This document shows positions 46,736 through 62,164 of a stretch of DNA of 64,000 nucleotides, in pieces. Position numbers and translations under genes: made by a program. A model generated the notes under the pieces. The model saw only the letters and a list, made by a program, of their open reading frames with translations. It had not been told where the DNA came from and ran no database searches. Within the stretch, counting starts at the first letter, position 1. Every line of letters begins with the position of its first letter. This stretch comes from Actinoallomurus bryophytorum (GTDB taxonomy: Bacteria; Actinomycetota; Actinomycetes; Streptosporangiales; Streptosporangiaceae): positions 6,944,001 through 7,008,000 of the forward strand of contig NZ_VFOZ01000001.1 of NCBI RefSeq assembly GCF_006716425.1, read 5' to 3'.

Positions 46736-46968
46736 TCCGTGCTCGGTCCATCCAGCGTGCCGGGCTGCCGGCCGCGGCCCCGCCGGATCGCGGCAATGAG
46801 GAGACAGCCCAGGCCGGCGCAGCCCGCCAGCGACGGGTCCGGAAGCCGCCCGGTCGGGTGGTCCGCGGTGGTCTCCAGGCGCTGCCGTACCTGCGCGGCC
46901 GTCAGCGTGGGCCGGTGGTCACGCACCAGCGCCGCCGTGCCGGCCACGAACGCCGCGGGTAACAGCAT
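46732..46968 (-). pseudogene. C-terminal remnant of a mycosin-like subtilase
   Basis: Only the last 78 residues remain. AAFVAGTAALVRDHRPTLTAAQVRQRLETTADHPTG is typical of the end of type VII secretion subtilases (MycP), and a short hydrophobic helix and basic tail follow. The catalytic Ser loop just before AFVAG is disrupted (MLLPAAFVAG in place of GTSxAAAFVAG), and upstream sequence belongs to a transposase. The gene was evidently cut by the element at 46986-48581. ESX-like proteins at 61.2-62.5 kb show that this secretion type exists in the organism. Confidence 0.6.
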
Positions 46969-46985
46969 CGCGGAGATCGTGCTGG

Positions 46986-48581
46986 TCAGGTCTCCCAGGC
47001 GACGGCGGGCCTAGGCGCGGGTGGGACGGGCGAGGTCTCCGCTTTCGGAGCGCGGGCGGCGGCCACGGGGGCGTGGGCGAGCATCGCGAGGGTGACGCGG
47101 CGGTGCCAGGCGTCGTAGCCGGGGATCTGGTCCAAGCCGACTTCGTTCCTGACCGCGGCGAAGCACTCCTCGATGGCCGAGCGCGTCCCTGCGATGCGCA
47201 CCAGCTCGGCCAAGGGCGTGCCGGCCGGTCCGTAGCACAGGTGGTAGGCCAGTTCGGGAGTGGCCTCGCCGAGTGCGGGCGGGGAACGACGGACCAGTAG
47301 CCATCGGGCGAAGAACTCACCCGCTCCGACGTCGTCCGAGTGAGGCGGCAAGGTGGCCATGGCCCAGTCATGGGACTGCGCTCCCTTGCCCGCGGACAGG
47401 CGCTTCCAGGCATGCCCCGGGGCGCCGGCGGTGATCTGGTCGGCCCGCAGACCGGTGCCGCCATCGTCGATGTCGGTTCCCAGCGGCTGAGTCCGCGGTA
47501 TCGCGACCACATAGCCCAGGTGGCGCCGTTCCAGATAGCGGCGGAACTTGTGGCCCTGGCCGTAGGCCTCATCGGCGGTCACCCATCGCGCCGCGACCCC
47601 GCCGTCCACGGCCCGGCGGATCATCGCCTGGGCCAGTTCCAGTTTGGTCGCGAAACCCACGTCCGCCGGGACGCCGGCCTTCTCGCACTGCCTCCGGTCG
47701 CCGGTCAATGACTTGGGCAGGTACAACTCCGCGTCGATCAATGCGCGGCCACGCGCGGTCGCGTACGCCAGGAACACTCCCCGGCCGGCTGGCCCGCCGC
47801 GCGGTCGCTGGGACACGGTCGGGAGGGTGCCCATTCTGGAGGATCCGGCCTCATCCACCACGAGCACGCCGCCGGTGTCGCCGAACCGTTCGACCACGGA
47901 CCCGCGCAGGTTCTCCCGCCGCAGCCGCGGATCCTCCTGGGCGCCGTTCGACAACCGCCGCATCAGATCGGACCGTGCGTCTCCGGCCACCTCCGCGCCG
48001 TTCTCCTCGGCCGTTTCCAGCGACTCCGTCAGTTGCTCTTCGAGGTGGAGCCGCAGGTTGCGAAGGGCGTGGTGGACACGGGACTTCACGGTTCCGACCG
48101 GTATGCCGAGTGCCTTGGCGGCCTGTGCCGCTGTGCGGTCGGCGAAGTAGACCTCGACTAATGCGGCGCGATGCGCCGGCGCGAGGCGTTCGAGGGCGCG
48201 TCTGACGAACATGGACTCCACCACGTCGTCGGAGTGGTCGGGCAGCATTCGCGTGGGTGTGTCGGCCACGAGAGTTTCCGGCGGCCGTGCCCGGCGAGCC
48301 CGGAGCTTGTCCACGGCGACGTTGTGTGCGACCCGTTTCAGCCAGGCGGCTATGGAGCCGCGCTCGGGCGTGAGCCGGTCGGCGTTCCGCCAGGCCCGCA
48401 CCATCGTCTCCTGGACGACGTCTTCGGCCTGGTACGGATCGGACAGCATTTTGGTGACATAGGCGAGGAGCGCCGAGCGATGCTGGATGTAGAGCGAGGT
48501 GACGAGCCGGCTGGGGTCGGACCCGGCCGAGCATGCGGCGTCCGCCGGGGATACATCATGTTCGAGAACTTGAGTGTCCAT
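46986..48581 (-). CDS. ECF sigma factor fused to IS701-type transposase fragment
   Basis: 531-residue chimera. Residues 1 to about 190 form a complete ECF sigma factor: region 2 (YVTKMLSDPYQAEDVVQETMVRAWRN) and region 4 (ALERLAPAHRAALVEVYFADRTAAQAAKALGIPVGTVKSRVHHALRNLR). From about residue 195 it is IS701-like: GDARSDLMRRL, VVERFGDTGGVLVVDEAG, GVFLAYATARGRALIDAELYLP, WVTADEAYGQ and IEECFAAVRNEVGLDQ. The transposase lacks its first part and the usual RQYSG-type segment, so transposition is unlikely. ATG at 48581 with GGAG upstream. The sigma part may still work with a long tail; its anti-sigma partner is absent. Confidence 0.8.
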   Translation of the reverse strand: MDTQVLEHDVSPADAACSAGSDPSRLVTSLYIQHRSALLAYVTKMLSDPYQAEDVVQETMVRAWRNADRLTPERGSIAAWLKRVAHNVAVDKLRARRARPPETLVADTPTRMLPDHSDDVVESMFVRRALERLAPAHRAALVEVYFADRTAAQAAKALGIPVGTVKSRVHHALRNLRLHLEEQLTESLETAEENGAEVAGDARSDLMRRLSNGAQEDPRLRRENLRGSVVERFGDTGGVLVVDEAGSSRMGTLPTVSQRPRGGPAGRGVFLAYATARGRALIDAELYLPKSLTGDRRQCEKAGVPADVGFATKLELAQAMIRRAVDGGVAARWVTADEAYGQGHKFRRYLERRHLGYVVAIPRTQPLGTDIDDGGTGLRADQITAGAPGHAWKRLSAGKGAQSHDWAMATLPPHSDDVGAGEFFARWLLVRRSPPALGEATPELAYHLCYGPAGTPLAELVRIAGTRSAIEECFAAVRNEVGLDQIPGYDAWHRRVTLAMLAHAPVAAARAPKAETSPVPPAPRPAVAWET

Positions 48582-48668
48582 TGGCGGGGCTCTCCAGTCC
48601 GGTCTTTTGTGGCGTCATGAGGGCGTGCCGGCGGTACCCCGCGGCCCGGGATGCCGCCGCGGAGGGAC

Positions 48669-49358
48669 TCAGCGGGGCGCCGTGGCGGCCTGCTTGATCA
48701 GGTCGGCGACCGCCTGTGGCTGGGACAGGTAGACGGAGTGGCTGGCGGATACCTCGGCCACCGTGGCGCCGGCGCGTTCGGCCATGGCGTGCTGCGCGGG
48801 CGGGGGGATCATCCGGTCGTCGGTGGCGACCAGGTACCAGCTGGGCTTCTGGCGCCATGCGGGCTCGCTGACCGCGCCGGCGAGGGCGTCCATGCCCCAG
48901 GGGACCTGCGAGTCGGCCATGAACTCCGCCTCCTGCAGCGGCACGTCACCGGCGAAGGAGGCGGGGAACTCCGCACGGTCGAGGAAGAGGAAGCCGTCCT
49001 GGGGCGGCAGGATCGGGGGTACCGGCGCACCGGGAGGTGGGTCGGCGATGAGCGTGTTCACCGATTCGCTCTTGTCCGGGGCGAAGGCGGCGATGTAGAC
49101 CAGCGCCACAACGGAGGGATGGAGCCCGGCCTCGGTGATGACCGCTCCGCCGTAGGAGTGACCGACCAGCACCGTGGGGCCGTCCTGGCGCTGCAGGACG
49201 CGGCAAGTGGCCTCGGCATCGCCTTCGAGCGACAGTGTCGGGTTCTGCACGATGCTGACGTTGAAGCCGTCCTGGCGTAGCAGCCGGTAGACCTGCTGCC
49301 AGCCGGAGCCGTCGACGAAGCCGCCGTGTACGAGGACGATATTGCGTGCCGTGTTCAT
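48669..49358 (-). CDS. Alpha/beta hydrolase
   Basis: 229-residue cytosolic hydrolase. The oxyanion region is LVHGGFVDGSGW, the nucleophile elbow GHSYGG, the acid probably in VATDDRMIP and the catalytic His in SASHSVYLS. Similar to small esterases often annotated as salicylate-esterase/pimeloyl-type hydrolases. It diverges from nothing on its left: the sigma-transposase chimera follows in the same direction. A motif shared with the promoter of the secreted hydrolase at 52634 lies 67-80 bp upstream, so the LAL regulator may control it. Confidence 0.85.
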   Translation of the reverse strand: MNTARNIVLVHGGFVDGSGWQQVYRLLRQDGFNVSIVQNPTLSLEGDAEATCRVLQRQDGPTVLVGHSYGGAVITEAGLHPSVVALVYIAAFAPDKSESVNTLIADPPPGAPVPPILPPQDGFLFLDRAEFPASFAGDVPLQEAEFMADSQVPWGMDALAGAVSEPAWRQKPSWYLVATDDRMIPPPAQHAMAERAGATVAEVSASHSVYLSQPQAVADLIKQAATAPR

Positions 49359-49424
49359 CGGTCTCCAGTCCCTCGTTGAGTGGATCTGGAAACGACGTTA
49401 AGAGTTAGGGGCGGTGGCTAGCGT

Positions 49425-49440
49425 CTGTCGAATGACTGGT
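49425..49440 (-). promoter_or_regulatory. Candidate LAL-regulator site 1
   Basis: Contains GTCGAATGACTGGT on the plus strand, matching GTCAAATGACTGGT at 52489-52502 in 13 of 14 positions. It lies between the hydrolase start (49358) and the stop of the LAL gene (49440). Confidence 0.4.
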
Positions 49441-52289
49441 CAGCCCGGCGAGGTCGTGTCGGTGTCGGTCTCGGGCAGGTCGGCGAGCGCGTCGCGCAAC
49501 GCGGCGCGGGAGGTGACGCCCAGCTTGGGGAAGATCTGGTACAGGTGGTAGCCGACGGTGCGCGAGGACAGGAACAGGCGCTCGCCGATCTGCTTGTTCG
49601 ACAGGCCCGCCGCCGCCAGCTGGGCGATCTGGCGCTGCTGCGCGGTGAGACCCGCGTCGCTGGTGGAGGTGGGCCGCTCGCGCTGGATGCCGGTGGCGCG
49701 CAGTTCGCGTGCCGCCCGTGCCGCCCACGGCCGGGCGCCGAGGTGCTCGAAGGCGTCCGCGGCGTCGCTGAGATGGACGCGAGCGTCGGACGGGGACTTG
49801 GTGCGCCGGAGTCGTTCGCCGTACGCCAGGCGGATGCGCGCCAGGTCGAAGGGCCACCGGTCGGCGTCCGGCGTGCGCAGCGCCTGTTCGAACAGGTCCC
49901 GGTGATCATCGTCGGCCGCCGCCATGGCGGCGGCACCGGCGACGGTGAGTGCGAGGCGGGACGACAGCTCGGCGAGGTGCGCCTCCTGCGCGGCCGCGAC
50001 GTGGGCGGCGGCCTCGGCGGGACGGCCGGATCGGGCCGCCGCCTCCACCAGCTCCATGACCAGCCACAGGGCGTTGGGAACATGCGAGGCCAGCTGCCCG
50101 GCCGGGCTGACGGCACCGGCGCACCGGTACGCCTCGTCGAAGTCGCCCTGGGACAGAGCGGCGAAGGTCTTGACGTGCCACGCGTAGGCGGACACGAGGC
50201 CGGCCCGGCGGGGTGCCGCCCAGCGGCTCATCTCTTCGGTCAGGGACCGGCTCGTGGCCTGGTCGCCGCGGCCGGTGGCGACCAGGGCCTGCAGGAACCG
50301 GCCGGTCCACCGCAGCAGCGAGTAGTTGTGGGCCTCGCACAGGGCGACGCCCTCGTCGGTCAGCACCTGAACCTCGTCCCATCGTCCGGCGAAGTAGGCG
50401 TCGTTGCCGAGCAGGAACAGCGCTTCGATGGCGGACGTCACCGCGCCGCCTTCACGGCCGTGACGCACGGCTCGCCACAGCGGCTCGCGGCAGTCGCCGA
50501 CGCGGTCGAGGTAGCTGCCGGCGATGGCGGTGCGAACGATGCGCGCCGGGCTCGTCTCCGTGGGCAGCCGGCCGATCAAGGCGTCCAGCTGACCGAGCAC
50601 GGGCTGGGCGCGCCGGGCGGGGTCACTGAAGGCGTTGGCCAGGATCGACAGCAAGTGCGGCGTTTGCGGCCGTAGCCGGTCGACGGCGGTGTGGAACGCC
50701 GGCCACAGCTCCGGCCGCCCGCCGAAGAACGCCACCATGAGCAGGGTGTAGAGGCCCTCGATCAGCGGCTTGTTGTGGGCGTCGCCCGGCTCCGGGAGCG
50801 CCTCGATGGCGCCGACGAGCAGGCGATGGGCGTTGTCGATGTCGCCGGTCTCGTTCAGCAGGTGGTACGCGCCGGCGACGGCTCCGGCGAGCGAGCCGCC
50901 GTGTTGTGGATCGGCTCGGCGGGCGGCGTCCATCAGGGCCGGCACCTCACGCAGATCGCCGGTGACGATGGCGCCCAGATAGGCGGCCTCCGCCAGGCGG
51001 CTGGAGCGGTCGGTGCCGGCGGGGCTGATATCGGCCGCCCTGAGCAACTGGGTGATGGCGCTCAGCGAGTCGCCGCGGAACAGGTTCGTGTGGGCGACCT
51101 CCTGCAGCAGCGCGGCCACCTCCTCGTCCGGCCCGGTGCACGCCTCCGCCAGGTGCCAGGCACGCCGAGCCGGCTCGTCCGCCCGTCGCTCGGCAAGGAT
51201 CTGGTGGGCACGCCGGCGTTCGTCGTCGGTGGCGAGCTCCACGACGGCCGACCGGATCAGCGGGTGACGAAACGACAGGCGGGCGGTCGCGCCGTGAATG
51301 GAGATCACGTGTGATCGATCGGCCGTCACCAGGTCGGCTGCCTCCGATCCTGGTTCGCCGTACCGCAGGACGTTCAGGTCCCCGGTCCCGTCCAGGACGG
51401 CCAGCAGGAGCGCGTGACGGGTCCGCGTCGGCAGGCCGCGGATACGCGCGGCGAACACTTCCTGGAGGCGGTGCGTCAGTGGCAGCGTGCCGGTGCCCGT
51501 ACGGTCGGCGTGCTGTGAGGTCAGCGCGATCGGCAGCTCCAGCAGTGCCAGGGGGTTGCCCTGAGCCTCCTCCAGCAGCCGGCGCCGCGAACGGAGGCCG
51601 AGAGCCGGGTACCGATTGCCGAGGAGGACTTCCGCCGAGGCGTCGGACAGCGGCCGGAGGTCATGTGCGCGGATGCCGGAGCGGTCTAAGAAACCGTCCT
51701 CGCCGGTACGCGCGGTGGCGAGGAAGCCCACCTTCGTCCCGGCGGCTCTGCGGGCGATGAATCCCAGCACCAGGGTGCTGACCTGGTCCAGCCAGGGCAG
51801 GTCGTCGACGACGATCAGGATCGGAGTGGTGCCGGCGGCTCGCGTGAGCAGTTCCAGCGCCGCGTGGGAGATCGTCATCCGATCCGGCGCCACGCCCTTG
51901 TGCAGTCCGAGGGCGCTGCGCAGCGCCATACGCTGCACATCGTCCAGTTGGTCGAGGTGGCCGCCCAGCAGCGGAAACAACACCTGGTGCAGGCCGGCGA
52001 AGCTGACGTTCGCTTCGAACTGTGCGCCGGCGGCGCGCAGCAGCCGCAACCCGGCCGAGACGGCGTAGGAGCCGGCCGCTTCGGCCAGCGCGGACTTGCC
52101 GACGCCGGCATCACCGGAGATCACCAGGGCGCCGCCGTAAGCCGCGACCTGGTCGACGAACGCGCGTACCGTTGCGACGTCCTCGTCTCGCCCCACCAGC
52201 GGCATCACATCGCCGGGCTGCGCCGAACCTGACGGTACGCCCGGCGTGGGGGCGCGGTTCGCGGGCCGGGCATCTTCAGGCCGGCTCAC
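49440..52289 (-). CDS. LAL-family LuxR regulator with ATPase domain
   Basis: 949-residue STAND-type regulator (large ATP-binding LuxR). Walker A GDAGVGKSALAE near residue 60, Walker B region ILIVVDDLPWLDQ, a long helical TPR-like middle, and a C-terminal LuxR helix-turn-helix (GLTAQQRQIAQLAAAGLSNKQIGERLFLSSRTVGYHLYQIFPKLG). LAL proteins sense a ligand and oligomerise to activate transcription, frequently for secondary metabolism or for sterol and sugar use. It stands at the left of the P450/hydrolase gene set, which it probably regulates. The start codon lacks a strong ribosome site. Confidence 0.9.
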   Translation of the reverse strand: MSRPEDARPANRAPTPGVPSGSAQPGDVMPLVGRDEDVATVRAFVDQVAAYGGALVISGDAGVGKSALAEAAGSYAVSAGLRLLRAAGAQFEANVSFAGLHQVLFPLLGGHLDQLDDVQRMALRSALGLHKGVAPDRMTISHAALELLTRAAGTTPILIVVDDLPWLDQVSTLVLGFIARRAAGTKVGFLATARTGEDGFLDRSGIRAHDLRPLSDASAEVLLGNRYPALGLRSRRRLLEEAQGNPLALLELPIALTSQHADRTGTGTLPLTHRLQEVFAARIRGLPTRTRHALLLAVLDGTGDLNVLRYGEPGSEAADLVTADRSHVISIHGATARLSFRHPLIRSAVVELATDDERRRAHQILAERRADEPARRAWHLAEACTGPDEEVAALLQEVAHTNLFRGDSLSAITQLLRAADISPAGTDRSSRLAEAAYLGAIVTGDLREVPALMDAARRADPQHGGSLAGAVAGAYHLLNETGDIDNAHRLLVGAIEALPEPGDAHNKPLIEGLYTLLMVAFFGGRPELWPAFHTAVDRLRPQTPHLLSILANAFSDPARRAQPVLGQLDALIGRLPTETSPARIVRTAIAGSYLDRVGDCREPLWRAVRHGREGGAVTSAIEALFLLGNDAYFAGRWDEVQVLTDEGVALCEAHNYSLLRWTGRFLQALVATGRGDQATSRSLTEEMSRWAAPRRAGLVSAYAWHVKTFAALSQGDFDEAYRCAGAVSPAGQLASHVPNALWLVMELVEAAARSGRPAEAAAHVAAAQEAHLAELSSRLALTVAGAAAMAAADDDHRDLFEQALRTPDADRWPFDLARIRLAYGERLRRTKSPSDARVHLSDAADAFEHLGARPWAARAARELRATGIQRERPTSTSDAGLTAQQRQIAQLAAAGLSNKQIGERLFLSSRTVGYHLYQIFPKLGVTSRAALRDALADLPETDTDTTSPG

Positions 52290-52633
52290 CGGACGCCCCG
52301 TTCGTCTGCCCGGTCAGTACACATGTCCGTCATGTTCGCCCTTGACGGGCGAACCGTCTACGTTCTCGGGCAGTTCATTCGCTCGCCACTTTCCGCGAGG
52401 CCCCCGCGGTGGCGTCGAACCGCGGGCGGACTGGTCGGTGGAGGCCTCCCTCTCACAGGTTAGGTAGCCGGGCCGTCGGCCAGGTTCAGTCAAATGACTG
52501 GTTCTCTGGCACGGCACCCGATCGCGGTGGTGCCATTCATGGCAGGGTTATACCTTCTCAATGGCAGGAGCAATTCCGGCCCATTGGGCCTCGGGGATTT
52601 CCGTGACGGCCTGCCGACCGAGAGGGCGGATAA
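52290..52633. promoter_or_regulatory. Divergent promoter region, LAL gene and secreted hydrolase
   Basis: Holds CAGTCA-AA-TGACTG at 52487-52500 (perfect 6-bp arms), which extends to the sequence repeated at 49425-49440; GTTCGCCC-TTGAC-GGGCGAAC at 52334-52354 just before the LAL start; and CCCGCGGT-N8-ACCGCGGG at 52403-52426. These are good operator candidates for autoregulation and for the rightward gene. Confidence 0.5.
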
Positions 52634-53701
52634 ATGCCAATCGATTCCGGAGCTTCCCGATCTCGCATGAGGGCGCTAGTAGCGCTCGCGGCCCTGATGG
52701 CCGCCTCGGTCGCCATTCCGGCGCGTGCGAGCGCTGCGGCAGGCGCCACCTGTCGGGATGTTCACATTCCGGTGTCGTTCACACCGGGAGGAGCGAAGAA
52801 CCAGCGCATCTACGGCGAGCTCTGCACGCCGGCGGGATCCCGCCCGCGCGTGATCCAGGTACTTGTCCACGGGACCACCTACGACCACAACTACTGGGAC
52901 CTGCCCGGGTTCGGCGGCCGGTACTCCTACGTGAAGCACACCGTCGCCCGGGGATACGCCGCACTGGCGATCGACCGTATCGGCGTCGGCCGGAGCTCGC
53001 ATCCGCTCAGCGCACTGACCACCGTCGACACCGACGCGGACACCCTGCACCAGGTCGTACAGGCCGTCCGCTCGTCCGCTTTCCCGGGTGGCGCCTACCC
53101 CCACGTCGTGCTGGTCGGCCACTCCTTCGGCACCCTGCTCTCCGAGCTGGAGCTGAGCGAACACCACGACGCCGACGGGATCATCGCCACCGGCTGGTTG
53201 GCCGGCCTGACGAAACCGGTGCCGACGGCCGGTCTGGTCGCGCGAAGTTACAGTGCCCTGCTCGATCCGGCGTTCGCCGGCCGGCGATTCGACCCCGGTT
53301 ACCTGACCACCCGGCCGGGCACCCGCGCCTTCTTCTACCAGGCGGGTACCTACGACCCGGCCGTGCTCGCCGAGGACGAGCGGCTCAAGCAGACCTACAC
53401 GGCCGGCGAACTGGCGACATTCGTCCGGCCACTGGTGCTCGACCGCCCCATCGAGCGGATCACCGGGCCCGTGCTTCTCGTGTTGGGTGAACACGACGTC
53501 TTCTTCTGCGGACTGACCGGGGTGGACTGCTCCACGAGCGAACGGGTCATGCGCAGCCAGGCTCCCCACTGGAAAGTGGCGTCCTCGCTGCAGGTGTACG
53601 TGCAAAAGGGCGCGGGCCATGACATCGGCCTGTCCTACAACAACACGGCCGGTTTCGCCGCCGAGGACACCTGGCTGACCGCCGAGTTCCCCCTCGGCTG
53701 A
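52634..53701 (+). CDS. Secreted alpha/beta hydrolase
   Basis: 355-residue hydrolase with an N-terminal signal peptide (MRALVALAALMAASVAIPARASA). LVHGTTYDHNYWDLP gives the oxyanion region, GHSFGT the nucleophile, GEHDVFF the acid and GAGHDIGLS the His. It is clearly paralogous to the cytosolic hydrolase at 56721-57656 (shared YDHxYWD, YSYV, ALAIDRxGxGxSS blocks), which has no signal. No clear ribosome site is seen. The pair, inside and outside, suggests a pathway whose ester or lactone is cleaved or made on both sides of the membrane. Confidence 0.88.
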   Translation: MPIDSGASRSRMRALVALAALMAASVAIPARASAAAGATCRDVHIPVSFTPGGAKNQRIYGELCTPAGSRPRVIQVLVHGTTYDHNYWDLPGFGGRYSYVKHTVARGYAALAIDRIGVGRSSHPLSALTTVDTDADTLHQVVQAVRSSAFPGGAYPHVVLVGHSFGTLLSELELSEHHDADGIIATGWLAGLTKPVPTAGLVARSYSALLDPAFAGRRFDPGYLTTRPGTRAFFYQAGTYDPAVLAEDERLKQTYTAGELATFVRPLVLDRPIERITGPVLLVLGEHDVFFCGLTGVDCSTSERVMRSQAPHWKVASSLQVYVQKGAGHDIGLSYNNTAGFAAEDTWLTAEFPLG

Positions 53702-53712
53702 GCATATGAGCC

Positions 53713-54882
53713 CTAGTGAAAGGTGACCGGCAGCGTGGTGAGGCCGCGGGTCACCGGACCGCTCCTCCAGTCGGGTTCGTAGCCGTCGGCGATGCGGTAT
53801 CCGGGCGCCATGGCGAGAAGTTCTTCGGCGACGATGCGCATTTCCAGCAGGGCGAGGTGCTCGCCGATGCAGCGGTGGATGCCGGAGCCGAATGCCACGT
53901 GCGGGTTGCGGTCTCGAGGGCAGACGAACTCCTCCGGCCGGTCGAAGACGGCCGGGTCGTGGTTGGCGGAGCCGAACACGAGCAGGGTGCGTTCCCCGTC
54001 CTCCAGTGTCTGCCCGGCCAGCTCGGTGCCTCCGCGTACGGTGCGGGACAGGGTGGCCACCGGAGCCTCCATGCGCAGGCTTTCGTCGATCATGCTCGGG
54101 ATGAGCGCCGGGTCGGCGATCAGCCGGTCCTTGAGGCCGTCGACGGTGGCCACGTGGTAGATCATCGTGCCGATACCGTGGACGGTGGTCTCATGCCCCG
54201 CCGCGACCAGCAGTAAGATCATGCCGAGCTTCTCCTCGGGGGTGAGCGGCCTTCCGTCGAACCGGCCCGTGTTGATCACACTGATGACGGTCTCGTCGTC
54301 GTCGCGGTCGAGGTGGCCGGAGATGTATGTCGCGAACTCCTGCGTCACCCGCTCGTTCTCCGCGTGATCGCCCGTGGCCGCCGTCGTCAGGAGCCGGGTC
54401 GTCCACTCCACGAACTGCTCGCCGTCTTCGGGCGGTAGCCCGAGAATCACGGCGATCGCCATCGGCGGCAGGTAGCGGGCCAGCGTGGGAACGAGATCGG
54501 CGCTGCCCTGCTCGATCAGTTCGGTGAGCCGGTCCCGCACCAGCCGGCGCAGAAGCGGTTCGTAGCGAGCCGCACCCTGCCGGGTGAACTGCCGCTGAAT
54601 GATCCTGCGGTACGCGGTGTGCTCGGGCGGGTCGAAGGCGATCGGCGGCGACAGGATGCCATGGACTCTGGGGATCGAGGCGCCATCGGCACTGCTGTAG
54701 GTGTGCGGATCGCCGGTCACCTCCTTGACGGCCCCGTGAGTCAGCACCGCCCAGAACCCCCCGTACCTGGTGCTGTGCACGACCGGGCAGCCCTCCCGGA
54801 CCTCCGCGAACACCTCGTGCATACGCGGCGCCAGCCATGGGTCGATGTGGTCGAACTCCCACCCGCGAGATTGTGCGGTCAT
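53713..54882 (-). CDS. Cytochrome P450 (1 of 3)
   Basis: 389-residue soluble class I P450. I-helix motif LLVAAGHETT, K-helix ESLRMEAP (ExxR), heme loop FGSGIHRCIGEHLA. Needs a ferredoxin and reductase, which are not encoded nearby. Last gene of the leftward operon P450-hydrolase-methyltransferase-dehydrogenase-P450. Its stop lies 12 bp from the convergent secreted hydrolase. Substrate unknown; the early GILSPPIAFDPPEHTAYRR segment is typical of bacterial secondary-metabolite and terpenoid P450s. Confidence 0.92.
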   Translation of the reverse strand: MTAQSRGWEFDHIDPWLAPRMHEVFAEVREGCPVVHSTRYGGFWAVLTHGAVKEVTGDPHTYSSADGASIPRVHGILSPPIAFDPPEHTAYRRIIQRQFTRQGAARYEPLLRRLVRDRLTELIEQGSADLVPTLARYLPPMAIAVILGLPPEDGEQFVEWTTRLLTTAATGDHAENERVTQEFATYISGHLDRDDDETVISVINTGRFDGRPLTPEEKLGMILLLVAAGHETTVHGIGTMIYHVATVDGLKDRLIADPALIPSMIDESLRMEAPVATLSRTVRGGTELAGQTLEDGERTLLVFGSANHDPAVFDRPEEFVCPRDRNPHVAFGSGIHRCIGEHLALLEMRIVAEELLAMAPGYRIADGYEPDWRSGPVTRGLTTLPVTFH

Positions 54883-54961
54883 GTTGTCGGGCCCTCTCTC
54901 GATACGAGCGGTGGTTCAGGACAAGGCATCCCGGCCACCTCTCCGCGCTGTCATGACCGGC

Positions 54962-55897
54962 TCAGAGCGCGAGTGCGTCGTCGCACTGGTACGCGTGCCG
55001 GCGGATCACATCCGCGGCATGATGCAGCGCGTACCCGTCGTGCTGCGCGAGCTGCCATTCGTGAACAGGCGACACGTGGTTCGAGCCGATGGTGATCGGT
55101 ACACCGATGGCGACGCCGTCGATGTCGTATTCGCCGTGAAGCGGCACGGCGGCGCACCAGTCCGACAACGCACGCGAGGCGAGGTCGTGAATCATGCGGG
55201 CCACGCCGGCCGCCGTGGTCCAGGCGGTCGTGCGGGCGACGCCGAGCGCCGCCCAGCGCGCGTACCAGCCCCTGATCTCAGCGCTGACGGACCGCTGTTG
55301 CTCCGGAGACAGCCGCACGGGCACCCCGCCCACGCGGATGCGGTCGAACAGCGGCACGCACCCATCGCCATGCTCGCCGACCACCCAGCCGACGACGTCG
55401 GAGGCGTGGGCGCCGAGGGCCTGCCCGACGGCGATTCGCAGACGGAGGCTGTCGTTCCAGGAGTAGCCCAGGAGCTGGTGGCGGTCGATCCGCGCGGCAT
55501 GGCCGAGCCAGGTGGTCAGGGGATCGACGGGGTTGGTCACGACGATGACGTGGCCGGACCAGTCCGCGGGCAGCTCGGCGAGCGCGCGGAAGTACGGGCG
55601 CAGGACCTCGATGTTGCGGGACAGGAAGTCCAGACGCGAGGCCAGGGGTTCGAAGGGAACGGAGGCGGTGATCACGACCACGTCGCTGTCCGCGAAGTCG
55701 TCGATGTCGCCGCTCCGTACCGCCGTGTCCCCGAACGGGGTCACGCCGCCCAGGTCCATCAGCTGGCAGGCGACGTACGGGCTGCGACGCCCGAGCAGCG
55801 TCACCTCGCATGGGTCGGCCGAGGTCAGCAGGGTGTAGGCGAGGGCCGACCCGACGCCGCCGTAGCCGCCGACGATGGTGACCTTGGTGGGGCTCAT
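54962..55897 (-). CDS. Lactate/malate-type NAD dehydrogenase
   Basis: 311-residue L-lactate/malate dehydrogenase superfamily protein: VTIVGGYGGVGSALAYTL, the VTNPVDPLTTW segment, the catalytic His in VVGEHGDGCVP and the closing PITIGSNHV. The substrate-binding Arg loop near residue 85 (VPFEPLASRLDFLSRN) is unlike standard LDH or MDH, so the substrate is probably a different 2-hydroxy/2-oxo compound. Its ATG overlaps the methyltransferase stop (ATGA). It is unusual to find this primary-metabolism fold between a methyltransferase and a P450 in one operon; a dedicated tailoring reductase is likely. Confidence 0.82.
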   Translation of the reverse strand: MSPTKVTIVGGYGGVGSALAYTLLTSADPCEVTLLGRRSPYVACQLMDLGGVTPFGDTAVRSGDIDDFADSDVVVITASVPFEPLASRLDFLSRNIEVLRPYFRALAELPADWSGHVIVVTNPVDPLTTWLGHAARIDRHQLLGYSWNDSLRLRIAVGQALGAHASDVVGWVVGEHGDGCVPLFDRIRVGGVPVRLSPEQQRSVSAEIRGWYARWAALGVARTTAWTTAAGVARMIHDLASRALSDWCAAVPLHGEYDIDGVAIGVPITIGSNHVSPVHEWQLAQHDGYALHHAADVIRRHAYQCDDALAL

Positions 55898-56688
55898 CGA
55901 GCGCCTCCTCGGGATGCGCCGGGCGTGCGCCGCCCGGACGCGGCGATCCAGCCGAACGAGCACATGAACGCGCCGGGGTCGGCCGATGCCTCGTGGAACG
56001 CGGTGACGAGGCCGGGGTCGATAGCCCGGCCCAGTCGCGGCCCGGCCGCGTCGACGGTCTGCGAGTAGAACCCCGCCCACGCGGATCCACCGTGGTAGAA
56101 GGGCACTTCCATCACGGTGTCGGCGACCTCGAGGCCGGCGTCGTGCATCGCGCCCGCCAGCTTGTGGCCGAGCCGGAAGTCGATGCCTTCGCGGCGGCCC
56201 CACCGGCACCACGCCGACCAGAAACGGTGGTGCGGTGGTACGGCGTTGAGCATGCTGCTGGTCGCATCGGGCTCGACGATCAGCAGCGATCCGCCGGGCT
56301 TCAGCGCGACGCCGCACTTCTTGATCACCTGCCGCCATTCAGGCAGGTGGTGAAGAAGCGCGCGAACGGTGATGAGGTCGAACGCCGACTCCGGCAGCGG
56401 GTCGTCCACCGCGTCGAGCCTGTCGATGACGACGTTGTCCGGGTGGCGCGCCTGGGACAGAAACCTGGTGTCCAGATCGGTGGCCAGCACGCGACCTGCC
56501 GGCCCCACCCGGGTCGCGATCCAGTCGGAGACGGTGCCCAGCCCCGCGCCGAGTTCGAGGGCGTGCCATCCAGAACCGATCCCCGCGGCCTCCAGGGCTC
56601 TACGGTGCAGGGGGTCGAGCAGACCAGCCAGACCCTGGAGACGGCGGCACTCACGGTCGCCGTCATTGGCAAACACATAAGAATGCAT
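55894..56688 (-). CDS. SAM-dependent methyltransferase
   Basis: 264-residue class I methyltransferase. Motif I is ALELGAGLGTVSDW, the acidic residue after strand 2 is in VLATDLDTRF, and the post-motif LITVRALLHHLPEW resembles UbiE/CmoA-like enzymes. The opening YVFANDGDRECRRLQGL is that of actinomycete small-molecule methyltransferases. Start ATG 56688 with a weak TAAGG site; its stop overlaps the dehydrogenase start. Third gene of the five-gene P450 operon. Confidence 0.87.
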   Translation of the reverse strand: MHSYVFANDGDRECRRLQGLAGLLDPLHRRALEAAGIGSGWHALELGAGLGTVSDWIATRVGPAGRVLATDLDTRFLSQARHPDNVVIDRLDAVDDPLPESAFDLITVRALLHHLPEWRQVIKKCGVALKPGGSLLIVEPDATSSMLNAVPPHHRFWSAWCRWGRREGIDFRLGHKLAGAMHDAGLEVADTVMEVPFYHGGSAWAGFYSQTVDAAGPRLGRAIDPGLVTAFHEASADPGAFMCSFGWIAASGRRTPGASRGGAR

Positions 56689-56720
56689 GAGCCTTACCGC
56701 CCAAACGATCGCATGGCTCG

Positions 56721-57656
56721 TCAGACCAGGGAGTCGAGCCAGTGCAGGATGAGTTCGTAGCTGGTGCGGGCGTTGCGGTGCAGGTTGATGTTGTGACCGG
56801 TGGCCGGGACGACCTGGAAGCTGAAATGCTCGGGGGCCTTTCCCTTCACCCGGTTGACGGCCTGGTAGGTGTCGATCTCGATGTCGTGGTCGAACATCAG
56901 CACGTCGTTCTCTCCGACCATGGCGAGCACGGGAGCGTCGATGAGGTTCCACGCGTCGGCGGCGGTGCCCATGTCGGATATCTCGCCCAGGGTCATGACG
57001 CCCTTGATCTTCTCGTCCAGGTCCAGGACCCGCGGATCGGTGTTCTCGGCCACGTAGAACGTGGGGACCCGGGCCTCCGGCCTGAGGGTGAGGTACCCGT
57101 CGTCGACAAGGCCGTACAGGTGTGCCACCACCGGATCGTCGGTGACGTTGTGGAATATGAGCGCGGACCGGGGGTCATCGTCCCGCGCCCCGGAATCGAT
57201 GCCCACGTGCCCGGTGAAGACCACGGCGTCGACATCCTTGTGGCTGCCGGCCTCCGCGCCGGCCACGGTCGAGCCGAACGAATGACCCACCAGGACGACG
57301 CGGTCGAAGGCCCTCCCCGCGAGGCTGCCGTCGCGTGCGGCGGTGACGATCTGGTGCAGGGCGCCGGCCTGTGCGTGGACGCTGTTGAGCCGGCCCGGTG
57401 GCCGGGAGCTGGCACCTGATCCGACGCGGTCGATGGCCAGCGTGGCGTGCCCGGCACGGCGGCAGTGTTCGACGTAGGAGTAGGTCTCGCGGTCCAGCGG
57501 CCAGTCCCAGTACCGGTGGTCGTAGCCGCCGCCGTGCAGAAGGATCTGGAGCTCGTTGCGGGCAGGGGACTCCGGGACGGTGAGCCAGCCGGCCACCGAC
57601 CATTCGGTGCCGAGTGGGGAGGTGCAGCCGATGCGCACCTCGGTCCGATCGATCAT
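56721..57656 (-). CDS. Cytosolic alpha/beta hydrolase
   Basis: 311-residue hydrolase without signal peptide, paralogous to the secreted one at 52634-53701. LLHGGGYDHRYWDWP, GHSFGST nucleophile, GENDVLMF acid and ATGHNINLH His. AAAGGAG precedes the ATG at 57656; the frame extends further but has no better start. Second gene of the leftward operon, 72 bp after the first P450 gene and 32 bp before the methyltransferase gene. Confidence 0.88.
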   Translation of the reverse strand: MIDRTEVRIGCTSPLGTEWSVAGWLTVPESPARNELQILLHGGGYDHRYWDWPLDRETYSYVEHCRRAGHATLAIDRVGSGASSRPPGRLNSVHAQAGALHQIVTAARDGSLAGRAFDRVVLVGHSFGSTVAGAEAGSHKDVDAVVFTGHVGIDSGARDDDPRSALIFHNVTDDPVVAHLYGLVDDGYLTLRPEARVPTFYVAENTDPRVLDLDEKIKGVMTLGEISDMGTAADAWNLIDAPVLAMVGENDVLMFDHDIEIDTYQAVNRVKGKAPEHFSFQVVPATGHNINLHRNARTSYELILHWLDSLV

Positions 57657-57727
57657 TGCAGTGCTCCTTTCGGGGGAGGGACGGAGCGTGCGGCGCGCCG
57701 GCGGGTGACGGATCGACCGCCCGGAGG

Positions 57728-58960
57728 TCACACCGGATGGGGGACGACGTTCAGATCGGCGAGGCCGTTGGCGACGAACGACGGCAGGCGGGCGGGCTGG
57801 TCCCCGGGACGGGCGAGGGCGAGGTCGGGCAGGCGGGTGAACAGCGTGGCCAGGGCGATCTCGGTCTCAAGCCGCCCGAGGTGCGCCCCGAGGCAGAAGT
57901 GGGGTCCGTCACCGAACGCGAGGTGCTCCTTGCTGGCGCGTGTCGGGTCGAAGCTTTCCGGGCAGTGCGGATGAACCTCCGGGTCGCGTCCGGCGGCGGC
58001 GAAGCCGATGATGATCGGATCGCCCTTGCGGATGACGACGCCTTCGCCGAGATCGATGTCCTCGATGGCGAAGCGCATCGGCATGTGCATGGCGGGGCCC
58101 TCGTACCGCAGGGATTCCTCGACGATGTCCTGCCAGCCGATCGTTCCCTCGCGGACCCGGGCGAGACTGCCGGGGTCGGCGAGCAGAATTCCGACGGCGC
58201 TGGTGATGAGGTTGACGGCGGTCTCGTAGCCCGCGCCGATCACCAGGAACAGGGTGTCGAGCAGCACGGGTTCCGGCATGGGCTCCTCGCCGGCCTCCGC
58301 GGACCGGAGCAGGTCGCTGGCCAGATCGGCGGCCGGATGCTCCCTCTTGTACCGCAGCAACTCGGTGAACCGGCTGTGGACTTCGGCTTGAATGGCCACC
58401 GCCTGCTCCGGGTCGACGGACGGATCCAGGACGGCGTGGATCGCCGCACCGAGTTTTCCGCGCATGTGGTCGGGGACACCGAACAGGTCGCAGATGACGG
58501 TCATGGCCAGCGGCAGCGCCAGGCCCTGCCGTACGTCGACCGTCGTCCCAGGCGGCAGGGCGGCGAGCGCCTCGACCAGGTGGTCAGCGGTCGCCTGGAT
58601 CTGCGGACGCATCTGCGCGACCCGCCGCGGCGAGAACGATGGGGCGATGCGGTGCCGGAACCTGCGGTGTTCCTCACCGTAGGCGTTGAAGAAGCTCTGC
58701 ATGAAGACGATGGGGGCCAGGGGCCAGCCTTCGGGTACGTCGGCCAGACCGGGCCAGTGCCGGCGGGCGTCGCGCGAGACGCGCGGGTCGCGGGTCAGCG
58801 CCTGGATGACGTTGTACCGGGTGACCGACCACGCGTGAACGGGCCCCGGAAGCTCGACGAGCACGGCCGGTCCCTGGGCACGCAACGCGGCGGCCTCCGC
58901 GTGCGTCGCACGGGCGGTGGGATCGAGAACGGGACATGTGGGCTGGGACGAGGACGGCAT
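57728..58960 (-). CDS. Cytochrome P450 (2 of 3)
   Basis: 410-residue P450. The I-helix reads LFLVIGAGYETAVN: Tyr stands in place of the usual His/Asp before the conserved Glu-Thr pair. K-helix ESLRYEGP and heme loop FGDGPHFCLGAHL are standard. It is the first gene of the leftward operon. Similar to CYP105/107-type actinomycete tailoring enzymes by overall pattern; no substrate can be assigned. Confidence 0.92.
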   Translation of the reverse strand: MPSSSQPTCPVLDPTARATHAEAAALRAQGPAVLVELPGPVHAWSVTRYNVIQALTRDPRVSRDARRHWPGLADVPEGWPLAPIVFMQSFFNAYGEEHRRFRHRIAPSFSPRRVAQMRPQIQATADHLVEALAALPPGTTVDVRQGLALPLAMTVICDLFGVPDHMRGKLGAAIHAVLDPSVDPEQAVAIQAEVHSRFTELLRYKREHPAADLASDLLRSAEAGEEPMPEPVLLDTLFLVIGAGYETAVNLITSAVGILLADPGSLARVREGTIGWQDIVEESLRYEGPAMHMPMRFAIEDIDLGEGVVIRKGDPIIIGFAAAGRDPEVHPHCPESFDPTRASKEHLAFGDGPHFCLGAHLGRLETEIALATLFTRLPDLALARPGDQPARLPSFVANGLADLNVVPHPV

Positions 58961-59324
58961 GCGGTGCTCCCCTCACTGGGGCGGCGGGGTGTCAGGGCTT
59001 CGGGCGCGGAGCGGCGTCGCGTCGACGTGCCGAAGGAGGCCGGGTCACCGGCGCTCGGTCAGGAGAACGCGGCCCTGCGTCGTCAGCTCTCATGTCCTCA
59101 ATACGCATCGGCGGACCCGAATGGTTCTCGGCGTCGCTCCTTGCCGTCCTTTCCAACGAGGTTCCTGGATTGATCCCGGCGGGGGACGCCGGCCGTAAGT
59201 ACCCATGGAGGGGTTCGTCAGGAGCAGGGACTCCGGCGGAACAGCCCCTACCAAAGGGAAGAGGGACCGCTGTGGCCGGCGGCACGAAGCCGGCTACAGC
59301 GGTGGAAGGACAGAGGAGCAAGCG
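58961..59324 (+). promoter_or_regulatory. Divergent gap with strong leader hairpin
   Basis: 364 bp between the divergent P450 gene and the hypothetical gene. A 14-bp stem (59267-59280 with 59291-59304, one mismatch, 10-base loop) ends only 6 bases before the GAGGAG ribosome site of the gene at 59325. There is no rightward gene upstream, so the hairpin lies in the leader and may control translation or transcription. No three-box motif is seen. Confidence 0.45.
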
Positions 59325-59876
59325 ATGACAGTGGCGGACCATCTGATCGCCGCGCTCGCCGAGGTGGATTCCGGCACGCCGAGGGTCGAGGTCTTCGACG
59401 ACGGGGCGGTGCCGGCTCCGTACCAGGACGCGGCCCTCGCGGCCGGGGCCGTGGTACGGAATGCGGTCCGGACTTCTCTACGGCTGGCGCGCACGTTCGA
59501 CGGGGCGGACCGCGACCGGGGACCGTTCTTCCGTCCGGATCATCCCCGGCTGGACGGCCCGGTGGGGGAGCGGGTGCTGGCCTATCTGCGTTCGGGAGAG
59601 GTCGTCTTCGACGCGCCGGGCGCAATGGACGACCTGCTCGACGCCGACCGGGTGGCCGCGGTGCCGGTCGGCTTCCGTTCGGACGGCCGGTGGGTCTGGC
59701 CGGAGGCGGTGGCGTACTACCTGAAACGCCATCGCCTCGCGCCCGAACCGGAACTGGTGGCGCACATCCTCGACGCCACGGCTCCGCCGGGCGCGCTGAG
59801 CCGGTTGACCCGGCATCAGGCCCTCGCGACGTTGTTCGCCCCCGGCGACGCCGAACCGGTGTGGCAGGCAGGCTGA
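59325..59876 (+). CDS. Hypothetical protein, unknown family
   Basis: 183-residue soluble protein not recognised. Features: an N-terminal helix (TVADHLIAALAEVDSG), a short FDDGAVPAPYQD stretch, and a C-terminal half with VPVGFRSDGRWVWPEAVAYYLKRHRLAPEPELVAHIL, followed by LSRLTRHQALATLF. It is Asp/Arg-rich, with no Cys and no membrane segment. The ATG has AGAGGAGC upstream, after a strong hairpin. The third P450 gene follows after 43 bp, so the two are probably co-expressed. The Trp-Pro-Glu-Ala segment looks like a binding motif, but I assign no function. Confidence 0.7.
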   Translation: MTVADHLIAALAEVDSGTPRVEVFDDGAVPAPYQDAALAAGAVVRNAVRTSLRLARTFDGADRDRGPFFRPDHPRLDGPVGERVLAYLRSGEVVFDAPGAMDDLLDADRVAAVPVGFRSDGRWVWPEAVAYYLKRHRLAPEPELVAHILDATAPPGALSRLTRHQALATLFAPGDAEPVWQAG

Positions 59877-59919
59877 TCCCGCTCGACCTGCGGGGTCACG
59901 GATGAGATGGAGTTCGTAG

Positions 59920-61128
59920 ATGATCGAACGGGAGCCAGGAGTGCACGGGACCCGGCTTGACTTCCAGGAGCAGGGCTTCATCGACGATCCTTACCCGGCA
60001 CTGCGCGCGCTGCGGGAATTAGGCCCGGTCAGCTATCACGAGGATCTCCAGCAGTACGTCATCGCACGCTACGAAGAATGCCTGACGGTGTTCTCGGATT
60101 CTCATGCGTTCTTCTCACCGCCGGAATTCTTCCGGTCGATGTTCGGCGGCGAGACGATCATGAGCATGGACGTGGACCGACACGATCAGACGCGCGGCAT
60201 CTGGGCTGAGACCTTCACACGTCGCGGCATCGCACCCCAGCGGGACATGATCACTGAGGTGGTCGACACCTGCCTGGCCTCGGTGACCGAGCGGCTGCGT
60301 TCGGGCGAGCGGGTCGACGTGGTGGCGGAGATGACCAGGCCGGTCCCCACCCTGGTGATCGCCCGCATGCTCGGCATTCCGGCGGCCGACCATCCCCAGT
60401 TCAGCGACTGGAGCGATGGCATGGTCAAGGCCGCCGAAGGGGCGACGGACTCCAGTCCGCAAGGCGCGGAGAACCTCCGCCTGGGCATGGAGGCCACCGC
60501 CGCCCTCAACGAGTACCTGACCACCATGATGTTCGCGGGACGCCGGTCGGGCTGTCCCGCCGACCTCATCGGCCAGATGGTCGACTCGCCCCTGTCCAAC
60601 GAGATGACCGCCCAGGAGATGACGGCCTCGGCGGCGCAGCTGGTGTTCGCCGGTAACGAGACCACCGCCAAACTCATGGCGACGACGTTGTACGCGCTGG
60701 CGCGATTCCCGGACCAGCGGCGCGTTCTGCTGGAGAACCGCGATCTCATTCCGCGTGCGCTGGAGGAGATCCACCGGTGGATGTCGGTGATCCACGTGGG
60801 CTGGCGGGTGGCACGCGATGGGAAGGGGCTGATCTCGGGGGTACGGATCCCGGACGGCGAGACGATTCTCGTACTGCAGGGCGCGGCGAACAGGGATCCG
60901 GCGCGATGGGAGGATCCCGACGTCCTGGATGTCCGCCGTGCGCCGCGCTCACATCTCGGCTTCGGATTCGGCATGCACCACTGCCTGGGCATCAGCCTCG
61001 CCCGGCTGGAGATGGCGATCTGGCTCAACCGGATACTGGACGAGATCCCCGACTGGGACGTGCTCGACGTCGACTGGGGCCGTGGCTGGGTCGCGAGAGG
61101 CCCGGTCCGGCTGACGATAGGAATCTAG
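59920..61128 (+). CDS. Cytochrome P450 (3 of 3)
   Basis: 402-residue P450. I-helix LVFAGNETTAKLM (Asn in the acid-alcohol pair region), K-helix EEIHRWMS, heme loop FGFGMHHCLGISLARLE. ExxR is EIHR. Start ATG with a weak site (GATGGAG). It follows the hypothetical gene at 59325 on the same strand and converges with the NlpC/P60 gene. The sequence SMDVDRHDQTRGIWAETFT in the C-helix region suggests an enzyme distinct from the other two. Possibly part of the same pathway. Confidence 0.92.
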   Translation: MIEREPGVHGTRLDFQEQGFIDDPYPALRALRELGPVSYHEDLQQYVIARYEECLTVFSDSHAFFSPPEFFRSMFGGETIMSMDVDRHDQTRGIWAETFTRRGIAPQRDMITEVVDTCLASVTERLRSGERVDVVAEMTRPVPTLVIARMLGIPAADHPQFSDWSDGMVKAAEGATDSSPQGAENLRLGMEATAALNEYLTTMMFAGRRSGCPADLIGQMVDSPLSNEMTAQEMTASAAQLVFAGNETTAKLMATTLYALARFPDQRRVLLENRDLIPRALEEIHRWMSVIHVGWRVARDGKGLISGVRIPDGETILVLQGAANRDPARWEDPDVLDVRRAPRSHLGFGFGMHHCLGISLARLEMAIWLNRILDEIPDWDVLDVDWGRGWVARGPVRLTIGI

Positions 61129-61153: not shown

Positions 61154-62164
61154 TCAAGGCATCCCCGGACGCGTGAAACCGAGGTACCCACCCGGGAAGT
61201 TCTTGTAGCTCTGGATCTGAACGTACGAGCCGGTGTGCGGGGCGACGATCATCGTGCCCTTCACGGGATCCTGGACGATACCCACGTGCTGCACGGTGCT
61301 TGTCCCTTCGGTGAAGAAGACGAGGTCGCCCGGCTGCTCCTGACCGTCGGGGATCCGTGGGCCCTGCGCCCACTGCAGTGCCGCGGAGTGCGGCAGGTGC
61401 ACGCCGATCGCCTCGTAGGCCTTCAGCGTCAGTCCTGAACAATCGAAAGTGTTCGGCCCGGCGGCGCCGAAGACATAGGGGTCACCCCTCTGGGCGAAGG
61501 CATAGGCGAGGACCGCCCTGGCCCGTGGATTAGGAGCGTTGTTCAGCGCATCCGGCGGCATCGGCAGGCCACCGCCCGATCCGCCGCCACCCGGCGAGCC
61601 GCCACCCGGCGAAAAGTCCGCCAGCTCGGTGTCCCCGCCCCCGTTGGCGGAGCGGGGGCCACCGCCCGGCATCACACTGCGGAGGGCGGCTGCCACCTGG
61701 CCGTCGGCCGCAGTGGCGGTCCGCACGGCCTTGTCGATGCTGTTCTGGATGTTCGTCTTCGTCTGCGACAGCTGCGCCCGCTGGTCGCCCGGCGCCCGGC
61801 CTATCACATTGTCCGGGTCCGTTATCTGGCCTTCCCCGGTCACGGAGAAGCCGACGTTGACGGCCTGGTCGCTCGCCGTGATCAGGTCATTGTGCGCCTG
61901 GCTGAACGTCGTGAACGCCGAGTTCAGCACGGTTTTCACCTGGCTCAGCGACTTTGATGACGCGGATGCCTGCAGGTGCGCGTCGGCGACGAGGGTGCGA
62001 GCCTGTTCCGACGCGGCGCCGTCCCACTTCGTCGACACCTTGTCATGGGCGGCGACCAGCCGATTCGCATGGTCGTTCACGGCCGCTGACCATTTGTCCC
62101 ATGCGTCGGCGCTGTCCTTGAGCTTGCCCGGCTGGGCGTTCAGCAACTGACTGAAGGTGACCAT
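61154..62164 (-). CDS. WXG100-like/NlpC-P60 cell-wall hydrolase
   Basis: 336-residue protein. Residues 1-100 form a helical hairpin with WDKWSAAVNDHANRL and STKWDGAASEQARTL, in the style of ESX/WXG100 substrates; then a Gly/Pro-rich linker; then an NlpC/P60 endopeptidase with Cys in NTFDCSGLTLKAYE and two His in VQHVGIVQD and VAPHTGSYV. There is no Sec signal, consistent with type VII export. Such enzymes cut peptide stems of peptidoglycan. Co-transcribed with the small gene upstream (62180-62494). Confidence 0.85.
   Translation of the reverse strand: MVTFSQLLNAQPGKLKDSADAWDKWSAAVNDHANRLVAAHDKVSTKWDGAASEQARTLVADAHLQASASSKSLSQVKTVLNSAFTTFSQAHNDLITASDQAVNVGFSVTGEGQITDPDNVIGRAPGDQRAQLSQTKTNIQNSIDKAVRTATAADGQVAAALRSVMPGGGPRSANGGGDTELADFSPGGGSPGGGGSGGGLPMPPDALNNAPNPRARAVLAYAFAQRGDPYVFGAAGPNTFDCSGLTLKAYEAIGVHLPHSAALQWAQGPRIPDGQEQPGDLVFFTEGTSTVQHVGIVQDPVKGTMIVAPHTGSYVQIQSYKNFPGGYLGFTRPGMP

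What the first reader, a model, noticed from the sequence alone, without database searches (positions are those of the whole stretch)
48669..61128. Second possible pathway: LAL regulator, three P450s and twin hydrolases, no core enzyme
A five-gene operon (P450, hydrolase, methyltransferase, lactate/malate-type dehydrogenase, P450) with stop/start overlaps stands beside a LAL regulator, a secreted paralogue of the hydrolase and a hypothetical gene plus third P450. No PKS, NRPS, terpene or RiPP core is present. The odd dehydrogenase with an altered substrate loop and the inside/outside hydrolase pair point to an undescribed tailoring or catabolic route.
Basis: partly seen in the sequence, partly recalled or inferred. 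Interest (0 to 1): 0.52.

Follow-up and report, generated by a model that had tools for sequence, protein, structure and literature searches.

The report
Rare tailoring cluster without core enzyme
A soil actinomycete carries a small, rare set of genes that looks built to oxidise, reduce, methylate and de-esterify an unknown acid, and one other species carries the same set; what it makes or breaks down is unknown.

Summary
The observation largely holds. Five co-directional genes (CYP154A-like P450, hydrolase, methyltransferase, LDH/MDH-type dehydrogenase, second P450) stand beside a LAL regulator, a secreted hydrolase and a third P450; no core enzyme was found among 49 window ORFs scanned with Pfam. 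Corrections: only one stop/start overlap is firm, and the hypothetical gene is not in the conserved set.

New: (1) The set is a sharply bounded 14-kb block shared with Actinomadura sp. DC4; single-gene searches found it in no other genome. Ten shared genes are open in both, dN/dS below 1. In DC4 the methyltransferase-dehydrogenase pair is inverted, so the five genes are not an obligate operon. (2) The dehydrogenase keeps the five catalytic residues checked but has Gly-Arg where E. coli Mdh has D34-I35 (the swap that gave an engineered Mdh NADPH preference) and Phe at R81: predicted NADPH-dependent reductase of a non-malate 2-oxo acid. (3) Both paired hydrolases are relatives of StnA, the streptonigrin methyl-ester hydrolase; a P450 lay within 6 kb of StnA-like genes at 6 of 8 other loci inspected.

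Best reading: a biosynthetic tailoring cassette with methyl-ester masking, substrate unknown. No synteny with a known catabolic cluster was found, but catabolism is not excluded.

The parts
46986..48581 (-). Left edge of the conserved block: ECF-type sigma factor fused in frame to a DDE_5 transposase-type domain (531 aa); link to the pathway not shown
   Evidence: Pfam Sigma70_r2, r4 and DDE_5; 71-73% identical, also fused, in DC4
48669..49358 (-). Alpha/beta hydrolase A (229 aa)
   Evidence: Abhydrolase_6; PDB relatives pyrethroid hydrolase E 1e-11 and salicylic acid-binding protein 2 E 1e-5; 89% identical in DC4, dN/dS 0.32
49440..52289 (-). LAL-type (LuxR, large ATP-binding) regulator
   Evidence: AAA_16 and GerE, Walker A; 88-90% identical in DC4
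52634..53701 (+). Secreted StnA-like hydrolase C
   Evidence: StnA (5HDF) E 1.2e-59; hydrophobic N-terminus; Ser-Asp-His aligned with those of G; only 42-43% identical to the gene at the same place in DC4
53713..54882 (-). Cytochrome P450a
   Evidence: PF00067; 85% in DC4; further copies in this genome (77% aa) and in DC4 (82%, and a broken copy at 70%)
54962..55897 (-). LDH/MDH-family dehydrogenase, predicted NADPH-dependent 2-oxo acid reductase
   Evidence: Ldh_1_N and Ldh_1_C; five catalytic residues kept, Gly-Arg at E. coli Mdh D34-I35, Phe at R81
55894..56688 (-). Class I SAM-dependent methyltransferase, 4-base overlap with the dehydrogenase
   Evidence: Methyltransf_11 and related models; overlap; 81% in DC4
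56721..57656 (-). Intracellular StnA-like hydrolase G (start ATG 57656 conserved in DC4)
   Evidence: StnA (5HDF) E 1.4e-40 with the triad residues aligned; 83% in DC4
57728..58960 (-). Cytochrome P450b, CYP154A-like
   Evidence: CYP154A1 (1ODO) E 3.7e-98, about 45% identical; 74-75% in DC4
59325..59876 (+). Hypothetical gene, probably not part of the conserved set
   Evidence: No match in the DC4 block; relatives 60-63% in type-VII-like loci; no Pfam or NCBIfam hit
59920..61128 (+). Cytochrome P450c, right edge of the block
   Evidence: PF00067; 88-89% in DC4, dN/dS 0.15; own genome and DC4 only, 2 of 297 order genomes, at E<=1e-80

Best explanation
A biosynthetic tailoring cassette under a LAL activator. 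Proposed course: the dehydrogenase reduces the keto group of a 2-oxo acid with a hydrophobic or aromatic side chain, using NADPH (residues shown; activity and substrate inferred). The overlapping methyltransferase methylates the product, most simply its carboxylate, giving a methyl ester that masks the charge (inferred). The P450s hydroxylate or couple the masked molecule (families shown; order inferred). StnA-like hydrolase G removes a methyl ester inside the cell, and the secreted StnA-like hydrolase C unmasks exported product outside (family shown; reaction inferred). The backbone comes from primary metabolism or from a core enzyme elsewhere in the genome (unknown).
For: Gly-Arg at E. coli Mdh D34-I35; in an already engineered E. 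[quoted passage not shown] Relative G067, in what reads as a rhamnose-utilisation operon, keeps Asp. R87, N119, D150, R153 and H177 all kept, R81 replaced by Phe. Both paired hydrolases match StnA (5HDF, named as StnA in PMC5225493) at E 1.4e-40 and 1.2e-59, and StnA hydrolyses a methyl ester with a Ser-Asp-His triad (PMC5225493, passages and section 2). StnA-like genes lie within 6 kb of a P450 at 6 of 8 loci outside the block, against one P450 per about 326 kb in this genome (29 matches in 9.47 Mb); two of the eight are close kin of the window genes. One such locus, on a Streptomyces NBC_00490 plasmid, is annotated like a biosynthetic cluster. Ten shared genes open with dN/dS below 1.
Against: No core enzyme in the ORFs scanned. 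The methyltransferase is only generically assigned and has weak relatives in 93 of 297 order genomes, so its 32% match at NBC_00490 says little; nothing shows a carboxyl substrate. Hydrolase C is only 42-43% identical in DC4 while the other shared genes are 71-90%, so it may not be an orthologue. The methyltransferase-dehydrogenase pair is inverted in DC4. The gene finder (50 aa and over) predicts no ferredoxin or exporter in the block; an MFS gene lies just left of it but outside the synteny. Structure models of G and the dehydrogenase were poor (mean pLDDT 58 and 63).
Confidence: 0.42

Rival explanations
1. Catabolic or detoxification route: P450s attack an exogenous compound, the secreted hydrolase cleaves an ester outside and G inside, and the LAL protein senses the compound.
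For: P450s, several hydrolases, a regulator and no core enzyme. Hydrolase A is nearest in the PDB to a pyrethroid hydrolase. The best PDB match of P450a is an entry named CYP125MRCA, with CYP142 (steroid C26-monooxygenase) lower on the list. The closest outside relative of the dehydrogenase (G067) lies in what reads as a sugar-utilisation operon.
Against: The NADP-type residues point to reduction. A methyltransferase is unusual in catabolism (general knowledge). No thiolase, CoA ligase, dioxygenase or uptake gene was found in the block. No synteny with a known catabolic cluster in the genomes searched.
Confidence: 0.25
2. Biosynthetic, but without methyl-ester masking: the methyltransferase makes an O- or N-methyl group and the StnA-like enzymes cleave another ester, amide or lactone; or the methyl ester serves to activate the acid for transfer, as CapS and CapW do in capuramycin biosynthesis.
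For: The methyltransferase matches only broad families, best PDB hit MitM at E 5e-8. The StnA-like gene of G113 stands without a methyltransferase in the 3.9 kb held. Carboxyl methylation as activation is described for CapS/CapW (PMC6384614, passages).
Against: The one characterised relative, StnA, hydrolyses a methyl ester.
Confidence: 0.2
3. No joint pathway: a loose gathering of accessory genes at a plastic site, some recruited from duplicates elsewhere.
For: P450a has extra copies in both genomes. Flanks are unlike in the two species, one pair is inverted, one gene is replaced. Pieces at the block edge have relatives in a type-VII-like locus.
Against: Ten genes, one of them much diverged, kept together in two species at about the divergence of a shared chromosomal locus (84-89% against 84-91% over most of it), all open, dN/dS below 1.
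Confidence: 0.1

Closest known systems
StnA, streptonigrin methyl-ester hydrolase (5HDF/5HDP)
   Same: Sequence match over nearly the whole of both hydrolases; for G the Ser185, Asp308 and His349 positions are aligned
   Different: No streptonigrin-like core family in the block; G is shorter (311 aa against a 383-residue StnA chain); substrate unknown; percent identity not computed
LDH/MDH family; nearest found are the G067 enzyme (44%) and, in the PDB, halophilic malate dehydrogenase
   Same: Five catalytic residues of 2-oxo acid reduction
   Different: Gly-Arg-Arg-Ser where NAD enzymes have Asp; Phe at the malate-binding Arg; sits beside P450s and a methyltransferase. NADP-linked family members as such are known (PDB entries named so)
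CYP154A1 of Streptomyces coelicolor (1ODO; host species recalled)
   Same: P450b about 45% identical over its length
   Different: Substrate unknown here; CYP154A1 surroundings not compared
StnA-like/P450 loci on plasmids of Amycolatopsis sp. AA4, Amycolatopsis sp. FU40 and Streptomyces sp. NBC_00490
   Same: StnA-like hydrolase within 6 kb of a P450; two StnA-like hydrolases in AA4; a LuxR-type regulator in FU40
   Different: No match to the window dehydrogenase in the stretches held

Membership tests
StnA-type methyl-ester hydrolases | Sequence homology to StnA over the catalytic and cap regions | tested here: met
   E 1.4e-40 (G) and 1.2e-59 (C), nearly full length
StnA-type methyl-ester hydrolases | Ser-Asp-His triad | tested here: met
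   G aligned with StnA Ser185, Asp308, His349; C aligned with G at the same residues
StnA-type methyl-ester hydrolases | Helical cap domain holding the substrate pocket | tested here: inconclusive
   Model pLDDT below 50 at residues 150-233
StnA-type methyl-ester hydrolases | Hydrolysis of a methyl ester | not testable with these tools
   Needs an assay
LDH/MDH 2-hydroxy acid dehydrogenases | Both Pfam domains and the catalytic Arg, Asn, Asp, Arg, His | tested here: met
LDH/MDH: malate or lactate dehydrogenase proper | Arg (malate) or Gln (lactate) at the specificity position (recalled); NCBIfam cut-offs | tested here: not met
   Phe at R81; none of the 10 NCBIfam matches reaches its cut-off, best 164 bits against 283
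NADP(H)-dependent variants of MDH | Loss of the NAD-selecting Asp, gain of a positive residue next to it | tested here: met
   G and R at E. coli D34 and I35 in the window and DC4; cofactor use itself not tested
CYP154 P450s | At least about 40% identity to a named CYP154 (recalled naming rule) | tested here: met
   About 45% to CYP154A1
LAL regulators | N-terminal ATPase with Walker A, C-terminal LuxR helix-turn-helix, about 900 aa | tested here: met
Known catabolic cluster (steroid, terpene) | Conserved synteny with such a cluster | tested here: not met
   High-identity dehydrogenase matches only in DC4 among the genomes searched; no named catabolic cluster was compared directly

The most novel reading that the evidence does not exclude
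An MDH-family enzyme with a changed cofactor site (NAD to NADP) and substrate pocket serves as a tailoring 2-oxo acid reductase in a core-less pathway that builds its product from a primary-metabolism acid by P450 chemistry under methyl-ester masking, with separate inside and outside unmasking esterases.
Probability: 0.2. Interest if true: 0.55.

Novelty: new variant of a known kind. Interest (0 to 1): 0.4.

Why it matters
If right, the locus is an orphan biosynthetic route that a search for PKS, NRPS or terpene cores would pass over, and it puts an MDH-family enzyme with an NADP-type cofactor site to work as a tailoring reductase. NADP-linked members of the family are known; it is the setting that would be new. 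The StnA-like/P450 pairing gives a handle for finding further such loci. As it stands the families are ordinary and the product is unknown.

Tried and rejected
Looked for wider synteny with the dehydrogenase (297 order, 8 genus and 396 phylum genomes, own genome counted, and one scan of genome contigs), P450c (297), hydrolase G (297: own, DC4 and two at 40%), P450a (345) and the methyltransferase (297): besides DC4 no genome was seen to share the set. These searches score few candidates per genome and I used strict E-value limits, so distant versions could be missed. The weak relatives of the methyltransferase (93 of 297), of which I looked at seven, stand in mixed surroundings and did not narrow its substrate. 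The LAL gene, hydrolase A and P450b were not searched on their own.

Looked for inverted repeats that could make the methyltransferase-dehydrogenase segment a switch: none convincing. Looked for a shared operator between promoter regions: parts of the LAL/hydrolase C and P450b upstream regions are conserved between species, but no repeated motif stood out. Recent transfer between the two species was considered and not favoured, since the block diverges about as much as the type-VII-like locus. P450c as a cyclodipeptide-associated P450: 163 bits against a 500-bit cut-off. Structure models of G and the dehydrogenase were weak, so I ran no fold search. Paper searches for LDH/MDH-family enzymes in biosynthetic clusters gave no paper or one unrelated by its listing; none names Actinomadura sp. 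DC4. The CYP154A1 search was seen as a listing only.

Full report
What is there. The hypothetical gene has no Pfam or NCBIfam match. No core enzyme family was hit among 49 window ORFs scanned with Pfam (10, 9, 10 each). The 4-base methyltransferase/dehydrogenase overlap is firm; the P450b/hydrolase overlap depends on a GTG start with no counterpart in DC4.

A conserved block. Comparing the window with bases 13000-58800 of the DC4 contig at E<=1e-20, DNA similarity is confined to window 46985-61125: 84-89% identical, starting at the end of a sigma/DDE_5 fusion gene and stopping at the end of P450c. Inside it three stretches differ. Secreted hydrolase C is only 42-43% identical in protein. The methyltransferase-dehydrogenase segment, 54948-56708, is inverted in DC4. 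The hypothetical gene is missing there; DC4 has a bulb-type lectin-domain gene in its place. All ten shared genes are open in both species; dN/dS by a simple Nei-Gojobori count is 0.15-0.54 in nine and 0.64 in hydrolase C. The two genomes are 84-91% identical over most of another chromosomal locus, so the block looks about as old as the split rather than newly exchanged, though its flanks are unlike in the two species. Of 8 genus genomes, own included, 2 carry the dehydrogenase.

Rarity. At E<=1e-40 the dehydrogenase was found in 3 of 297 order genomes (own, DC4 85%, G067 44%) and 2 of 396 phylum genomes (own, G482 36%). A scan of genome contigs gave 14 relatives, of which only DC4 exceeds 40% identity. 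At strict limits P450c was found in 2 of 297, hydrolase G in 4 of 297 and P450a in 2 of 345, with extra copies in both genomes. The G067 relative sits in an operon that I read as rhamnose utilisation from its protein sequences (not run through a family search).

The dehydrogenase. Aligned with E. coli Mdh, R87, N119, D150, R153 and H177 are all present; that these are the catalytic residues is recalled. D34 is Gly, I35 is Arg and A36 is Arg in both the window and DC4. In an already engineered E. [quoted passage not shown] its activity was nearly six-fold higher with NADPH than with NADH (PMC11882521, abstract and passages seen). R81, which binds the malate carboxylate (recalled) and was among the residues changed in that enzyme, is Phe here. 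One of two distant G482 relatives also has Gly-Arg, though the alignment needs a one-residue insertion there. NADP-linked members of the family are known, by the names of PDB entries. The residues predict an NADPH-dependent reductase of a 2-oxo acid that is not malate; that the side chain is bulky or aromatic is inferred from the Phe.

The hydrolases. G and C match StnA of streptonigrin biosynthesis (5HDF and 5HDP; E 1.4e-40 and 1.2e-59); beyond StnA the only PDB match up to E 0.01 was a weak one for C (E 0.003). StnA hydrolyses the methyl ester of a streptonigrin precursor with Ser185-Asp308-His349 (PMC5225493, passages and section 2 seen). The triad residues are in place. C has a signal-like hydrophobic N-terminus, G does not. 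Outside the block I inspected eight StnA-like loci. Six have a P450 within 6 kb: own C2 and DC4 C101, the latter with both genes broken; G113; NBC_00490, AA4 and FU40. Two do not: G149, with 3.9 kb held, and Embleya, where no P450 matched in 16.8 kb. Four of the 12 matching plasmid records were fetched. With one P450 per about 326 kb in this genome the pairing is well above chance, but both kinds of gene gather in biosynthetic clusters, and two of the six are close kin of the window genes, so this is support and not proof.

The P450s. P450b is about 45% identical to CYP154A1. The best PDB match of P450a is an entry named CYP125MRCA, with P450cin and CYP142 further down. A close homologue of P450a in DC4 stands next to an acyl carrier protein and a ketosynthase-like gene. 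P450c had no PDB match at E<=1e-50.

Mechanism and standing. The best-supported reading is a tailoring cassette: reduction of a 2-oxo acid with NADPH, methylation, P450 oxidation, and methyl-ester removal inside and outside the cell. Shown: families, residues, conservation. Inferred: substrate, order, methyl ester, direction. A methyl ester could instead activate an acid for transfer, as CapS does for CapW in capuramycin biosynthesis (PMC6384614, passages seen). Catabolism remains possible because P450s, hydrolases and a LAL sensor would fit it too. The membership tests put the hydrolases with StnA by sequence and triad, with the cap domain inconclusive and the activity untested; the dehydrogenase is an LDH/MDH-family member that fails the marks of malate or lactate dehydrogenase proper.

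Novelty. The families are known. The combination and its core-less make-up make it a new variant of a known kind. Paper searches found no description; they cover open-licence papers only.

Noticed in passing
window 46986-48581: ECF sigma factor (regions 2 and 4) fused in frame to a DDE_5 transposase-type domain, 71-73% conserved and also fused in DC4, at the edge of the block.
   Followed up: partly
window 46732-46968: Apparent remnant of a subtilase gene: about 120-130 bases are 82-93% identical to parts of intact subtilase genes in this genome and DC4; the one in this genome lies next to an FtsK/SpoIIIE gene in a type-VII-secretion-like locus.
   Followed up: partly
window 59325-59876; L024 14163-15185: The hypothetical gene, the sigma domain and the subtilase remnant all have relatives within one 12-kb stretch of the chromosome (G000:C1 about 2048-2060 kb), and likewise in one stretch of DC4 (C30).
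   Followed up: partly
window 54948-56708: The methyltransferase-dehydrogenase segment is inverted between the two species without clear flanking inverted repeats.
   Followed up: yes
L027 7796-19052 (DC4): A P450a homologue beside an acyl carrier protein and a ketosynthase-like protein with GGASASG where I would expect the active-site Cys (by eye, not aligned), near a Met-tRNA-synthetase-like and a saccharopine-dehydrogenase-like gene.
   Followed up: no
L025 10641-12918 (G000:C2): A second pair of P450a and secreted StnA-like hydrolase in the same genome, near ORFs that look like transposase fragments; DC4 has a broken copy of the pair at C101.
   Followed up: partly
window 61154-62164: NlpC/P60 protein with a long N-terminal part right of the block; not part of the DC4 synteny.
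   Followed up: no
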